NCBI RefSeq assembly: GCF_029892965.1
Contig: NZ_JARXWN010000014.1
Span: forward strand, 1 to 64,000
DNA length: 64,000 nucleotides
Origin: Dysgonomonas sp. PF1-14
GTDB taxonomy: Bacteria; Bacteroidota; Bacteroidia; Bacteroidales; Dysgonomonadaceae
Direction of reading: 5' to 3'
Of the stretch, positions 1-5,469 are shown piece by piece. Every line of letters starts with the position of its first letter. Position 1 is the stretch's first letter. The translations under genes were made by a program, and so were the position numbers. The notes under the pieces are model-generated. The model saw only the letters and a list, made by a program, of their open reading frames with translations, did no database searches and was not told the DNA's origin.

Positions 1-355
1 CATAGGCATAGTGAAAGTCTATTTTATATTTTTCATCATTTACAGTTATATAACCGACATTCAATCTATCATAAGCATAATGAAAGTCTATTTTATATTT
101 TTCATCATTTACAGTTATATAGGCAACATCTAATCTATCATAGGCATAGTGAAAGTCTATTTTATATTTTTCATCATTTACAGTTATATAACCGACATTC
201 AATCTATCATAAGCATAATGAAAGTCTATTTTACCTAATGATGGTTTTATTTCTATTTCTTCTTCTTTATTAGGTAAAGATATATCTTCCTCTTCCCCAC
301 AAGCGTTGAAAAGGAAAAAGCTACATATAAAAAACAAGTATATTAATTGTTTCAT
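1..355 (-). CDS. Repeat lipoprotein 1 (3' end cut by window edge)
   Basis: The start codon is the ATG at 355 on the minus strand, and the frame is still open at base 1, so the C-terminus is missing. The first 20 residues form a lipoprotein signal (MKQLIYLFFICSFF, then FNACGE), with Cys as the lipidation site; it should sit in the outer or inner membrane. A short acidic linker follows, then 23-residue units built on KIDFHYAYDRLNVGYITVND. At DNA level these are 69-bp direct repeats in which alternate units are almost identical. The aromatic/charged alternation suggests stacked beta-strands. Its signal peptide matches those of the next two lipoproteins, but the repeat sequence is its own. The family is not recognised and no function can be assigned. 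Confidence 0.85.
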   Translation of the reverse strand, partial: MKQLIYLFFICSFFLFNACGEEEDISLPNKEEEIEIKPSLGKIDFHYAYDRLNVGYITVNDEKYKIDFHYAYDRLDVAYITVNDEKYKIDFHYAYDRLNVGYITVNDEKYKIDFHYAY

Positions 356-364
356 AATCATTAA

Positions 365-610
365 TCTTTAGCTTCTACAAATATAGACTATCCTTTCCGT
401 CCGAAGTTTAATATTCACAAGCAAAGTTTTGGGAAATATTTTGAAGCAGGCGGACGGCTAACACCACCCATTATAGACGTACCTAGCGAAACAATGAATA
501 ACGAGGAACTGCTAAAAGCAATAAAATCAATGAATATGAAAGTTGCAGTGACGGATATTATGCGTGTACACGATGAAATGACACAGGTTGATGGCTGGTC
601 GGGGATATAA
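365..610 (+). pseudogene. 3'-end gene fragment, copy 1
   Basis: An open frame of 81 codons without a convincing start ends at the TAA at 608-610. The readable tail runs from EAGGRLTPPIIDVPSETM through MNMKVAVTDIMRVHDEM to DGWSGI. Two more copies lie at about 1035 and 1904, each in front of the next repeat lipoprotein. It looks like the C-terminal end of a longer gene that was duplicated together with the lipoprotein. A phage tail protein is possible given the portal gene nearby, but that is a weak inference. Confidence 0.5.
378..385 (-). promoter_or_regulatory. -7 promoter box of repeat lipoprotein 1
   Basis: On the minus strand this reads TATATTTG, an exact match to the Bacteroidota -7 consensus TAnnTTTG, 22 bases before the ATG at 355. 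The surrounding block of about 55 bases is repeated before all four lipoprotein genes. No clear -33 TTTG is visible at the usual spacing. Confidence 0.6.
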
Positions 611-618
611 TTCCATAT

Positions 619-646
619 AAAATAGCCGAAATTTTTCGGCTATTTT
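619..646. terminator. Bidirectional terminator between fragment 1 and lipoprotein 2
   Basis: A 12-bp perfect stem AAAATAGCCGAA / TTCGGCTATTTT with a short loop is flanked by A and T runs, so it can end transcription from both directions between two convergent reading frames. Confidence 0.85.
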
Positions 647-1031
647 ATCTTATATACGCATAGTCCAATATATTGGAAGTATAATAGAAATCAATTTTAT
701 AAATTTTGTCTTTGGTTTTTAAATTTGCATAATATAATATGTTGGAAGTATAATGAAAATCAATTCTATAAGTTTCGTCTTTAATTTTAAAGTTTGCATA
801 GTCCAATATATTGAAGCTATAATGGAAATCAATTCTATAAGTTCCGTCTTTGGTTTTTAAATTTGCATAATCTAATATATTGAAGCTATAATGAAAAGTG
901 ATCTTATTTGCAGACGGAATTATTACTCCGATATCATCTCCATAGTCTATTCCTTCTTCCTTTTCCCCACAAGCGTTGAAAAGGAAAAAGCTACATATAA
1001 AAAACAAGTATATTAATTGTTTCATAATCAT
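645..1031 (-). CDS. Repeat lipoprotein 2
   Basis: A 128-residue lipoprotein. The signal peptide matches lipoprotein 1 over the first 20 residues (MIMKQ or MKQ start, lipobox FNACG); the MKQ start at 1025 is the better match to the paralogues. After a GIDYGDD linker come about four 23-residue units of the form FHYSFNILDYANLKTKDGTY. Unit length is the same as in the neighbours, but the sequence has been homogenised to a different version. Transcription should start at the TATATTTG box at 1048-1055 and end at the hairpin at 619-646. The function is unknown; a surface-exposed beta-repeat protein is the most that can be said. Confidence 0.8.
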   Translation of the reverse strand: MIMKQLIYLFFICSFFLFNACGEKEEGIDYGDDIGVIIPSANKITFHYSFNILDYANLKTKDGTYRIDFHYSFNILDYANFKIKDETYRIDFHYTSNILYYANLKTKDKIYKIDFYYTSNILDYAYIR

Positions 1032-1034
1032 TAA

Positions 1035-1280
1035 TCTTTAGCTTCTACAAATATAGACTATCCTTTCCGTCCGAAGTTTAATATTCACAAGCAAAGTTTT
1101 GGGAAATATTTTGAAGCAGGCGGACGGCTAACACCACCCATTATAGACGTACCTAGCGAGACAATGAATAACGAAGAACTGCTGAAAGCAATAAAATCAA
1201 TGAATATGAAAGTTGCAGTGACGGATATTATGCGTGTACAAGACGAAATGACACAGGTTGATGGATGGTCAGGAATATAA
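1035..1280 (+). pseudogene. 3'-end gene fragment, copy 2
   Basis: The second copy of the fragment at 365-610, of identical length (246 bases including the stop) and with only scattered substitutions; for example it reads MRVQDEM where copy 1 has MRVHDEM. There is no credible start codon, and upstream the frame runs into the promoter block of lipoprotein 2. It is best read as part of the duplicated unit rather than as an independent gene. Confidence 0.5.
1048..1055 (-). promoter_or_regulatory. -7 promoter box of repeat lipoprotein 2
   Basis: TATATTTG on the minus strand inside the second copy of the conserved upstream block, at the same distance from the MKQ start codon as in lipoprotein 1. 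Confidence 0.6.
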
Positions 1281-1288
1281 TTCCATAT

Positions 1289-1316
1289 AAAATAGCCGAA
1301 GTCTTTCGGCTATTTT
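1289..1316. terminator. Bidirectional terminator between fragment 2 and lipoprotein 3
   Basis: The same 12-bp stem as at 619-646 (AAAATAGCCGAA / TTCGGCTATTTT) with a changed loop, GTC in place of ATT. The terminator was duplicated with the unit. Confidence 0.85.
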
Positions 1317-1830
1317 ATATTATATACGCATACTCTAATTGATCGTAACGATAATAGAAAGTGATTTTATAAGAGTCATCTTTTATATATAAACGTGCAT
1401 GATCTAATTGGTCATAACGATAATAGAAAGTGATTTTATAAGAGTCATCTTTTATATATAAACGTGCATGATCTAATTGGTCATAACGATAATAGAAAGT
1501 GATTTTATAAGAATCTTCTTTCGTATTCAGATACGCATAATCTAATTGATCGTAACGATAATAGAAAGTGATCTTATAAGAGTCATCTTTTGTATATAAA
1601 CGTGCATAATCCAATTGGTCATAACGATAATAGAAAGTGATCTTATAAGAGTCTTCTTTCGTATATAAATATGCATAACTCAATTCATCAGAGCTATAAT
1701 AAAAAGTAATCTTATTTGTGGAAGGAAGTATTACTTCATTATCATCTCCATAGTCTATTTCCTCCTTTTCCCCACAAGCATTGAAAAGGAAAAAGCTACA
1801 TATAAAAAACAGATATATTAATTGTTTCAT
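1315..1830 (-). CDS. Repeat lipoprotein 3
   Basis: A 171-residue lipoprotein with the same signal peptide as its two paralogues (MKQLIYLFFICSFFLF, lipobox NACGE). Six 23-residue units of the type ITFYYRYDQLDYARLYTKDD follow. Several adjacent units are nearly identical in DNA, which points to recent unit expansion inside this gene. The start at 1830 lies 22 bases from a TATATTTG box. With its neighbours it forms a tandem family in which the export signal is conserved while the repeat domain drifts as a block. Nothing in the sequence identifies a ligand or an enzyme. Confidence 0.85.
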   Translation of the reverse strand: MKQLIYLFFICSFFLFNACGEKEEIDYGDDNEVILPSTNKITFYYSSDELSYAYLYTKEDSYKITFYYRYDQLDYARLYTKDDSYKITFYYRYDQLDYAYLNTKEDSYKITFYYRYDQLDHARLYIKDDSYKITFYYRYDQLDHARLYIKDDSYKITFYYRYDQLEYAYII

Positions 1831-1852
1831 AATTATTAATCTTTAGCTTCTA

Positions 1853-1860
1853 CAAATATA
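1853..1860 (-). promoter_or_regulatory. -7 promoter box of repeat lipoprotein 3
   Basis: TATATTTG on the minus strand in the third copy of the conserved upstream block, 22 bases before the start codon at 1830. Confidence 0.6.
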
Positions 1861-1903
1861 GACTATCCTTTCCGTCCGAAGTTTAATATTCACAAGCAAA
1901 GTT

Positions 1904-2086
1904 TTGGGAAATATTTTTGAAGTAGGCGGACGCCTAACGCCTCCCATTATAGACGTACCTAGCGAGACAATGAATAACGAAGAACTGCTAAAAGCAATAA
2001 AATCAATGAATATGAAAGTTGCCGTAACGGATATTATGCGTGTACACGATGAAATGACTCAGGTAGATGGCTGGTCGGGGATATGA
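1904..2086 (+). pseudogene. 3'-end gene fragment, copy 3
   Basis: The third copy of the repeated 3' gene end. It carries one extra T in the run at about 1913-1918 compared with copies 1 and 2, which shifts the upstream part out of frame. A TTG at 1904 could start a 60-residue peptide (GNIFEVGGRLTPP to DGWSGI), but translation is doubtful. The stop is TGA instead of TAA, and the shared terminator is missing after it; a different hairpin follows at 2102. Confidence 0.45.
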
Positions 2087-2101
2087 TTAATCTTTTAGTT
2101 G

Positions 2102-2122
2102 CTGGGGATGATAAATCCCCAG
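2102..2122. terminator. Hairpin after fragment 3
   Basis: A perfect 8-bp stem CTGGGGAT / ATCCCCAG with a 5-base loop lies between two convergent frames. There is no long T-run, so its action as a terminator is uncertain. Confidence 0.45.
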
Positions 2123-2165
2123 TGACGAAGATTATGTTCAAAAATTCGATATATCCTCTTATACT

Positions 2166-2912
2166 TTAATTATCTGTGTAAATTTTACCTGTATACAACG
2201 ATCCATCCGACCAGTTATCAAAACTCATTGCATATAATAAGGTTGAGCCTGTGTAAATTTTACCTGCATACAACGATCCATCCGACCAGTTATCAAAACT
2301 CATTGTGTATAATAAGGTTGAGCCTATGTAAATTTTACCTGCATATAACGATCCATCCGACCAGTTATCAAAACTCATTGTGTATAATAAGGTTGAGCCT
2401 ATGTAAATTTTACCTGCATATAACGATCCATCCGACCAGTTATCAAAACTCATTGTGTATAATAAGGAAGCTATTTTCCCCTCACCCCCTCTCACATACT
2501 TCCCATCTATATTAAACACAATATCGCCTTTGGCATCCGCCCCTGCGCGGATATAGTTGCCATCGAGGTTAAAGACTGCATCGCCTGTCTTTTCCTTTCC
2601 CGCCCGTATCAGTTTGCCGTCTATATTGAATACGATGTCGCCTGTTTTGTCCTTTCCCGCACGCACATAGTCTCCGTCGAAGTTAAAGACGGCATCGCCC
2701 GACTTTTCCTTTCCCGCACGGATAAGGTCACCATCAAGGTTGAAGACGATATTTTCTTTCGGGGTAGGTTCGGGAGTTGGTGTCGGCGTTGGTTCAGGAT
2801 TGTAAGGATCGTCACCGCCATCGCAGGCTGTCAGTAAAAGCAAGCCCAACAATAGGCCTCCTAGCCCCCGTAGGGGGGATTTGGAACGGATATAGGATAG
2901 TATGCTATTCAT
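2166..2912 (-). CDS. Repeat lipoprotein 4 with two repeat blocks
   Basis: A 248-residue lipoprotein. Residues 1-30 form the signal (lipobox LLTACD); residues 14-26 (SPLRGLGGLLLGL) are encoded by a GC-rich palindromic repeat. A Pro/Thr-rich linker (PEPTPTPTPEPTP) follows. Block 1 has five units of about 20 residues of the type VFNLDGDLIRAGKEKSGD. Block 2 has four 25-residue units of the type LLYTMSFDNWSDGSLYAGKI, copied as nearly perfect 75-bp DNA repeats. Both blocks look like beta-strand repeats. It shares the promoter block with the three upstream lipoproteins, but the signal peptide and repeats are unrelated. The function is unknown. Confidence 0.85.
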   Translation of the reverse strand: MNSILSYIRSKSPLRGLGGLLLGLLLLTACDGGDDPYNPEPTPTPTPEPTPKENIVFNLDGDLIRAGKEKSGDAVFNFDGDYVRAGKDKTGDIVFNIDGKLIRAGKEKTGDAVFNLDGNYIRAGADAKGDIVFNIDGKYVRGGEGKIASLLYTMSFDNWSDGSLYAGKIYIGSTLLYTMSFDNWSDGSLYAGKIYIGSTLLYTMSFDNWSDGSLYAGKIYTGSTLLYAMSFDNWSDGSLYTGKIYTDN

Positions 2913-2976: not shown

Positions 2977-2984
2977 CAAATATA
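2977..2984 (-). promoter_or_regulatory. -7 promoter box of repeat lipoprotein 4
   Basis: TATATTTG on the minus strand in the fourth copy of the conserved upstream block. Here the block is followed by unrelated sequence instead of the 3' gene fragment, which marks the right end of the duplicated array. Confidence 0.55.
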
Positions 2985-4007: not shown

Positions 4008-5126
4008 TTATAAAGTGTTGTCGGCTGTCAGTTCTTTAGTTATGGTAAGATCGTCCACCGCCAGTTTCCGGTAACCATTGTTGATGGTGAATATGCTGAG
4101 CGTGTCCAGTATCTTTCGTCTTAGTTGATGTATTACGGTATGGTTGTACAGTATATACGAATTGATGATCTCGTTGGCATTTCCACTCAGATTGCCCGAT
4201 CCCGATAATCCCGCTAGGGTAGGAGAGGTGAGGCGGTGAGCCGAAATGATCTTCTGGAAAATGATCTCGTCCACATTGTTGTACAGGTCGGCGTTGTTGC
4301 TGGCAGTGTATGACGTCACCACAGGCTTTATCTCCTGACTTTCGCCCCACAGCACCACAATGCTGTTTGCTCCGTTTGTACCTGCATAACTGTTTTCTAT
4401 ATCCCGCTGAAACTGCTCCTTTTGCTTACTTGTGGGATTGCTCGGCATGGTAATGATGGTAGAGGGCACAAAGCCGTTGTTGATAGAGTTTCGGTAAAAT
4501 TTCCCCAGCAGCCCGTCGGCTTCTATGTAACTCAGTGCCGAGTAATATTGAGGGATCGGGTAGTAGTCGAGACTTGGCTCATAATCTTTGTAGTAGAAAA
4601 GATAAGGCACACCTTTCCGCATCTCTTCCGATCCGTAAGCTTTTATCTCTACAGGCGCATATTTACCATAGGTTTTTCGCCAGTCATTTGCCAGATAAAA
4701 ACTAAGGTATGCACCGTACTCATTCACCTCGCCCACACGTACTTTGCTGAAATCGGTATGATACAGGCTCACCGTCTTACCGTTCTCGTTGAGTATCACC
4801 TGAAAGCAGTATCCACCGAAAGTGACATAGTCGGTCGCTATCTTTTCTATCAGCGCATCCCAGTCGTCTATCGGATTGGGTTGCCCGTAGTATTCGCCCT
4901 CTCTCACACCCGTTCCGCAGATGTAGGTCACTTTGTTGTTGATAACCGCTTTGTTGATAGCCGATTCGTTGTTAAGCTCGATGATGCGTTGCGGCAGCAG
5001 ATTGTCGTTGTCATAATTTATCCATCCCTTATGGTTTTTCACGAATGTAGGATAGGATTTTACAGATTGAGACAGTTTTATCACTGCATAATTGTTTTCA
5101 GCCGGATATTGTTCCATATTTTTCAT
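4008..5126 (-). CDS. Phage portal protein
   Basis: A 372-residue protein from the ATG at 5126 (MKNMEQYPAENNYAVIKL). Longer in-frame starts would add an implausible basic/low-complexity N-terminus. Phage-portal traits are visible: the early stretch WINYDNDNLLPQRIIELNNE, NKVTYICGTG, a central YYPIPQYYSALSYIEAD, and SPTLAGLSGSGNLSGNANE near residue 310. In phages, portals form the dodecameric ring through which DNA is packaged. No terminase, capsid or tail gene adjoins it, so it is probably a prophage remnant or a captured gene. Degenerate 12-bp repeats lie upstream. Confidence 0.75.
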   Translation of the reverse strand: MKNMEQYPAENNYAVIKLSQSVKSYPTFVKNHKGWINYDNDNLLPQRIIELNNESAINKAVINNKVTYICGTGVREGEYYGQPNPIDDWDALIEKIATDYVTFGGYCFQVILNENGKTVSLYHTDFSKVRVGEVNEYGAYLSFYLANDWRKTYGKYAPVEIKAYGSEEMRKGVPYLFYYKDYEPSLDYYPIPQYYSALSYIEADGLLGKFYRNSINNGFVPSTIITMPSNPTSKQKEQFQRDIENSYAGTNGANSIVVLWGESQEIKPVVTSYTASNNADLYNNVDEIIFQKIISAHRLTSPTLAGLSGSGNLSGNANEIINSYILYNHTVIHQLRRKILDTLSIFTINNGYRKLAVDDLTITKELTADNTL

Positions 5127-5271
5127 TGTTTCTTCTGTGTTTTCGTTATAGATAATCTCGTTTGAAAAAAATGCAGATTTTTCAAAAAAAAAATTAGAAC
5201 AATCTTTTTCTTTTATCTTAATTTTCTTTTTTAATATTCTTGTCTTTTCTTGTCTTATGTATGGTATAGGT

Positions 5272-5331
5272 GAGCGTACTGGTGAATGTACAGGCGAGCA
5301 TATAGCAGAGTGTAGCCATAAGTGTACCATA
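5272..5331. repeat. Five degenerate 12-bp tandem repeats
   Basis: Successive 12-mers read GAGCGTACTGGT, GAATGTACAGGC, GAGCATATAGCA, GAGTGTAGCCAT and AAGTGTACCATA, with a core near GAGTGTAC. They sit about 150 bases upstream of the portal start. On the minus strand they can be read as a 4-residue repeat (SPVH-like) of an N-terminal extension, but an iteron or operator array is equally possible. Confidence 0.55.
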
Positions 5332-5469
5332 TACCATATCGGAAATGATACAGATGGGGTGCATAAAATACTTTTTCCGTATAATCTTTTATTCTTTTTT
5401 AACTCAAAAAATTGCATTTATAATTTTAGACTATTTAATTTTGCAAAATATAATTTGAATAAATAAATA

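What the first reader, a model, noticed from the sequence alone, without database searches (positions are those of the whole stretch)
1..2912. Tandem array of lipoproteins whose repeat domains are homogenised within each gene
Seen: four consecutive minus-strand lipoprotein genes share the upstream promoter block. The first three share an almost identical signal peptide and a 23-residue (69-bp) repeat period, but the repeat sequence is different in each gene and nearly identical within each. This is what repeated local unit expansion in each copy gives, and it would let a cell vary surface repeats quickly. The fourth gene has two further repeat types (20 and 25 residues). No known family was recognised. 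Inference: a surface variation or decoy system.
Basis: partly seen in the sequence, partly recalled or inferred. Interest (0 to 1): 0.72.

Follow-up and report, generated by a model that had tools for sequence, protein, structure and literature searches.

The report
Repeat lipoproteins beside phage tape-measure fragments
In Dysgonomonas bacteria, surface-type lipoproteins with rapidly changing, internally copied repeats sit beside a phage tail-ruler gene, and broken copies of that gene travel with them, which suggests, but does not prove, a changeable shield against (or key for) phage-like particles.

Summary
Four minus-strand lipoprotein genes lie at 2-2912. Three have 69-bp repeats that are alike within each gene (DNA 0.82-0.93) and unlike between genes (0.58-0.66), while signal peptide (66/66) and flank (273/283) of the first two genes are nearly identical. 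An intact TMP lies at another contig's end, followed by a further repeat lipoprotein. Across Dysgonomonas a convergent lipoprotein often stands just 3' of TMP, with a conserved beta-flower domain (Pfam PF21786; gene 4 has it) and a hypervariable repeat tail of 2-13 copies. 12 of 21 TMP-bearing genomes have the domain within 500 bp of a TMP end; 5 carry extra TMP ends. Phage genes nearby look domesticated: a portal gene under purifying selection that tracks host phylogeny, with phage genes scattered among host genes. I favour a surface exclusion or self-immunity lipoprotein with specificity in the repeats; function is inferred. Two predictions of direct TMP binding, covariation and opposite charge, were not supported.

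The parts
2..361 (-). gene 1, lipoprotein with 69-bp repeats, cut by the contig end
645..1031 (-). gene 2, lipoprotein with 69-bp repeats (658-897)
1315..1830 (-). gene 3, lipoprotein with 69-bp repeats (1328-1715)
2166..2912 (-). gene 4, lipoprotein with beta-flower domain (about 2451-2750) and 75-bp repeats (2177-2467)
368..607 (+). TMP 3' end, copy 1 (clear homology from about 430)
1038..1277 (+). TMP 3' end, copy 2
1916..2083 (+). TMP 3' end, copy 3; 93% DNA identity to the intact TMP end on contig C29
378..385 (-). TATATTTG promoter-like element of gene 1 (read, position)
1048..1055 (-). TATATTTG promoter-like element of gene 2
1853..1860 (-). TATATTTG promoter-like element of gene 3
2977..2984 (-). 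TATATTTG promoter-like element of gene 4
4008..5417 (-). phage portal protein gene (start uncertain; homology covers about 4008-5117)

Best explanation
The array is a set of cargo cassettes of a phage-derived, vertically inherited structural-gene set in Dysgonomonas. Each cassette is one lipoprotein gene with its own promoter, convergent to a tape-measure 3' end. SHOWN by sequence: lipobox and export-like signal; beta-flower domain in gene 4 and its relatives; hypervariable repeat domain homogenised at DNA level; tandem [TMP end + lipoprotein] modules with near-identical flanks or N-termini and different repeats. INFERRED: (1) cassettes were duplicated or acquired by recombination in the TMP 3' end, leaving TMP stubs, and each repeat domain was then remade by unequal exchange of whole 22-30-aa units; (2) the protein sits on the cell surface, anchor and beta-flower at the membrane, repeats outward; (3) the repeats bind a component of incoming phage or phage-like particles, or mask their receptor, giving superinfection exclusion or self-immunity of changeable specificity; retained old modules would widen the repertoire.
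For: Linkage: 17 of 27 PF21786 hits in 25 genus genomes lie within 500 bp of a TMP end. Modules: extra TMP ends near one another in 5 of 21 TMP-bearing genomes; G007 modules share N-terminus and flower (427-431 of 453 bp) with different tails. Promoter-like TATATTTG in 12 of 18 genes against 1.3 expected from shuffles. Export-like acidic residues 19 of 19 against 3 of 11; the export signal is described in PMC5080379 (passages). A phage lipoprotein with anchor, spacer and repeat domain, Ltp, excludes phages by acting on TMP (PMC3952083, passages). A second repeat lipoprotein diverges from the 5' side of TMP in 4 loci.
Against: No functional data. TMP end and repeat class do not covary significantly in 18 modules with classes set by eye (p 0.11 between genomes, 0.055 all pairs). 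Net charge is not complementary: 23 TMP ends 0 to -5, 16 repeat domains +2 to -6. Lipoprotein absent beside TMP in several genomes, so it is not needed for the element. 10 of 27 flower hits are not close to a TMP end. No INPHARED phage has a relative of gene 4.
Confidence: 0.4

Rival explanations
1. Surface variation or decoy aimed at something other than phage-like particles (animal host immunity, predators, adhesion); the TMP neighbourhood is only where cassettes landed.
For: Hypervariable, homogenised repeats and surface-export-like signal.
Against: Linkage to the TMP end and TMP stubs in the modules are unexplained; no switching mechanism was seen.
Confidence: 0.2
2. Receptor or compatibility factor for the element's own particles: it lets particles in rather than keeping them out.
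For: Same linkage; portal kept by selection in the genus; several repeat types per genome.
Against: Particles are not shown; no terminase was located by one family search.
Confidence: 0.12
3. Nearly neutral cargo: AT-rich genes at a permissive site whose repeats expand by slippage or unequal exchange without a selected specificity.
For: Genes 1-3 have 25.6-27.3% G+C against 39.5% for the window; absent beside TMP in several genomes; a remnant of only about 38 bp at C8.
Against: Long open frames, conserved flower domain, promoter-like and export-like signals.
Confidence: 0.18
4. Membrane or ligand-binding lipoprotein without link to phage (beta-flower is in the Tubby clan).
For: Clan assignment CL0395 by the fold's discoverers (PMC10584680, passages).
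Against: Does not explain the TMP modules or repeat diversity.
Confidence: 0.1

Closest known systems
Beta-flower proteins (PF21784, PF21785, PF21786; PMC10584680)
   Same: Gene 4 and relatives match PF21786 above its cut-off; some described members are lipoproteins.
   Different: A hypervariable C-terminal repeat domain and a link to TMP ends are added; genes 1-3 have no beta-flower match.
Ltp-type superinfection exclusion lipoprotein of Streptococcus thermophilus phage TP-J34 (PMC3952083)
   Same: Phage-linked lipoprotein with anchor, spacer and repeat domain.
   Different: Here predicted beta hairpins (weak model), not the helical repeats that the paper implies; charge pattern differs; no exclusion data.
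Orphan-tip arrays of polymorphic toxins (CdiA, Rhs; search listing only, otherwise recalled)
   Same: Displaced 3' ends of a large gene, each with a companion gene, stand in tandem.
   Different: The displaced ends are conserved TMP sequence, no toxin domain was found, and the variable part is the companion gene.
Gene transfer agents (recalled; PMC12946183 passages)
   Same: Phage structural genes kept by selection and inherited vertically, scattered among host genes.
   Different: Terminase and DNA packaging not shown.

Membership tests
Beta-flower (PF21786) | Score above Pfam's cut-off, gene 4 | tested here: met
   81 bits against 34
Beta-flower (PF21786) | Score above Pfam's cut-off, genes 1-3 | tested here: not met
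   no beta-flower model among hits up to E 5
Beta-flower (PF21786) | Six-fold barrel of hairpins | tested here: inconclusive
   gene 4 model pLDDT 40
Surface-exposed Bacteroidota lipoprotein | Lipobox and acidic export signal after the cysteine | tested here: met
   19 of 19 against 3 of 11 controls; signal as in PMC5080379
Ltp-type superinfection exclusion | Lipid anchor, spacer, repeat domain | tested here: met
   (genes 1-3 have only a short spacer)
Ltp-type superinfection exclusion | Negative repeat domain against positive TMP C-terminus | tested here: not met
   TMP ends are 0 to -5
Ltp-type superinfection exclusion | Blocks DNA injection | not testable with these tools
   needs an experiment
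Gene transfer agent | Vertical inheritance and purifying selection of structural genes | tested here: met
   portal only: Mantel rho 0.75, p 0.0005, 21 genomes; median dN/dS 0.05 on 87 of 210 pairs
Gene transfer agent | Terminase with the structural genes | tested here: inconclusive
   PF03237 only, 8 genomes: matches in 5, none on the element's contig except G019, where it is over 4 Mb away by coordinate
Gene transfer agent | Packages and transfers host DNA | not testable with these tools
   needs particles
Polymorphic toxin orphan-tip array | Variable displaced C-termini with toxin domains | tested here: not met
   TMP ends keep a common sequence; no toxin family for the window tail ORF

The most novel reading that the evidence does not exclude
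A domesticated phage-like particle (gene-transfer-agent-like) is maintained genus-wide in Dysgonomonas, and its tape-measure locus is a cassette platform that stores and rewrites surface lipoprotein keys or shields: conserved beta-flower base, self-homogenising repeat tip, older versions archived downstream with TMP stubs. The searches made here showed no description of such a repeat-based, recombination-driven compatibility system.
Probability: 0.22. Interest if true: 0.88.

Novelty: new variant of a known kind. Interest (0 to 1): 0.62.

Why it matters
If right, it would tie a recently described fold without known function (beta-flower) to phage or particle entry, offer a natural system in which specificity changes by copying repeat units, and point to a vertically kept phage gene set in Dysgonomonas, for which no paper in the library names a gene transfer agent. 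It also names genes to remove in a test.

Tried and rejected
Structure: AlphaFold of gene 4 with 12 sequences was unusable (pLDDT 40). Gene 3 gave 70.6 in one model and 39-42 in the other four, so I use it only for 'beta hairpins'. No PDB chain matched the profile of alignment A1 at E up to 1.

TMP-repeat co-evolution: not significant. In G007 modules 1 and 3 share tail (0.89) and repeat kind while module 2 differs in both; in the window's own genome the C29 and gene-4 tails are 93% identical but the repeat types differ.

Phage origin: no relative of gene 4 in INPHARED; the TMP end only weakly like Cellulophaga phage phi46:1 (39.5% over 45%). The one viral-contig hit of the A1 profile (L226) carries the same array as G007.

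Misassembly as the whole explanation: rejected, since flank copies 1 and 2 differ at 10 of 283 sites and a two-module array stands in a single-contig genome.

Spread of gene 3's repeat type: strong matches only in the own genome (3 places); 4 of the 24 other genomes gave weak ones, E 6e-4 to 0.009. By eye D. hofstadii (L044) has a similar unit.

Rows left out or weak: L044 and L045 (masked bases) were left out but kept. G019 module 1 was left out of alignment A1. In one search the rows for g4, L051 and G019m2 include preceding sequence, so their identities are understated and their copy numbers overstated. L052 (G014) was missed's lipobox filter although one search counts its flower hit. One search used rounded identities: portal rho 0.65 (p 0.002), TMP 0.51 (p 0.02), capsid 0.45 (p 0.08, not significant). 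Repeat classes and most gene names were set by eye. The controls include some doubtful ORFs.

The odds that could be read there (novel case, interest) are unchanged.
Full report
WHAT IS THERE. The window is bases 1-64000 of contig C14 of a 4.58-Mb genome in 49 contigs. Its genus is Dysgonomonas: genus-mate G001 has a 190167-base contig equal in length to the D. hofstadii record. The contig begins inside the repeat of gene 1. Units of genes 1, 2 and 3 are 0.93, 0.82 and 0.84 identical within a gene but 0.58-0.66 between genes, although the 66-bp signal stretch of genes 1 and 2 is identical and their flanks match at 273 of 283 positions. The repeat domain has thus been rebuilt or replaced much faster than its surroundings. 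Gene 1 holds a two-unit block repeated without change over 95 of 95 bases, a sign of recent multi-unit duplication.

WHAT LIES BETWEEN THE GENES. The shared upstream block is a promoter-like stretch followed by the last 57-80 codons of a phage tape-measure (TMP) gene, facing the next lipoprotein. The intact gene on contig C29 (717 aa) matches PHROG tape-measure profiles weakly but clearly (E 1.2e-5 and 4e-5); another, standing alone, is on C8 (830 aa). C29 ends just after its TMP, inside a further convergent repeat gene of another type. That C29 and C14 join into an array of at least five lipoproteins is inferred from two contig ends that both stop in such repeats.

THE GENUS. The TMP end is found in 21 of 25 genus genomes. 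PF21786 is found in 17 of 25; 17 of its 27 hits lie within 500 bp of a TMP end, in 12 of the 21 TMP-bearing genomes. Extra TMP ends close together occur in five genomes: G000, G007, G013, G019, G021. The 12 proteins of alignment A1 share a signal peptide, a proline-rich linker and a beta-flower domain with many invariant positions; the tails are units of 22-30 aa that differ from genome to genome. Copy number runs from 2 to 13. In G019 module 1, 261 of 265 same-residue codon comparisons at one unit's lag are identical, so homogenisation acts on DNA. In G007 three modules share N-terminus and flower (427-431 of 453 bp) but differ in their tails: modules 1 and 3 are 244/369 alike there, module 2 is unlike both. 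On the 5' side of TMP a second repeat lipoprotein with a common signal peptide diverges in four loci, L009, L044, L050 and L111. The one on C29 matches PF21785 and PF21784 and the one in G019 matches PF21786; the one in L050 matched no beta-flower model and L044's was not scanned.

IS IT A PROPHAGE? Portal, at 4008-5417 in the window, is found in 22 of 25 genus genomes: one close copy in each, split in two pieces in G024, with an internal TGA in G018, plus a second distant copy in G017 and weak further matches in G002 and G013. In the family it is found in 31 of 101 genomes, among them all six listed of one sister genus. Portal protein distances follow those of RadA (Mantel rho 0.75, p 0.0005, 21 genomes); median dN/dS is 0.05 on the 87 of 210 pairs with unsaturated dS. 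Capsid is found in 18 of 25. In the single-contig genome G019, phage-type genes are spread over about 59 kb among host-type genes such as sucCD (names largely by eye; PHROG and Pfam support for the C29 homologues of protease, capsid and TMP; five other C29 proteins had no PHROG match and one matched only families without a function). By eye some neighbours recur: a HipA-like gene lies 23 kb from portal in the window and next to the end of the phage genes in G019, and a sucD-like gene lies near TMP in L045 too. This looks like a vertically kept, dispersed phage gene set. A terminase was not located with PF03237, so I do not call it a gene transfer agent.

HOW IT MOST LIKELY WORKS. Own promoter (TATATTTG in 12 of 18 genes against 1.3 expected; that this is the Bacteroidota -7 element is recalled), lipid anchor and export-like signal (19 of 19 against 3 of 11 controls; signal described in PMC5080379, passages) point to a protein shown on the growing cell. 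The phage lipoprotein Ltp, with spacer and repeat domain, excludes other phages by acting on their TMP (PMC3952083, passages). By analogy I propose exclusion or self-immunity with specificity in the repeats. Two predictions of an Ltp-like contact with the TMP end were not borne out: opposite charge and TMP-repeat covariation (p 0.11 and 0.055). The target may be another particle component or a receptor.

WHAT IS KNOWN. The beta-flower fold was described in 2023 from predicted models, some of them lipoproteins (PMC10584680, passages). Dysgonomonas with 'gene transfer agent' gave 0 papers; Dysgonomonas with prophage 12 (listing only); beta-flower names 3 and 15 (listings); TMP with orphan, lipoprotein, Bacteroid- and immunity 1 (listing). 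None of the listed titles describes this arrangement. A 2026 gut study reports gene-transfer-agent activity in Oscillospiraceae and Ruminococcaceae and lateral transduction in Bacteroides (PMC12946183, passages). The library holds open-licence papers only.

VERDICT. Observation confirmed and enlarged; local unit expansion is supported; function is open. The coupling to a tape-measure gene is the more interesting part.

Noticed in passing
window 4008-5417; L151-L154 (G019:C1, about 4964.5-5023.4 kb): Phage structural genes (portal, capsid, protease, TMP) are kept across Dysgonomonas but scattered among host genes; portal is under purifying selection and tracks RadA.
   Followed up: partly
L009:11672-12145; also 5' of TMP in L044, L050, L111: A second repeat lipoprotein diverges from the 5' side of TMP, with a common signal peptide; the C29 copy matches the five-fold beta-flower model.
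   Followed up: partly
L003:1600-1970 (G000:C8): After the lone C8 TMP only about 38 bp of a gene-4-like start remain, and the promoter block is split by a stretch with inverted ends that looks like a small mobile element (by eye).
   Followed up: no
G000 C29 and C14; G006 C15 and C47; L047, L049, L050: Several draft genomes break just after the TMP end or inside the repeats, so published copy numbers there are unreliable.
   Followed up: no
window 2-1830 and 2166-2912: Base composition is mosaic: genes 1-3 25.6-27.3% G+C, gene 4 flower part 50.5%, its repeats 34.4%, window 39.5%.
   Followed up: no
L112, L114 (G019 and G006), L118 (G017): Some genomes carry a second, more distant TMP gene; no flower lipoprotein was counted close to it.
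   Followed up: no
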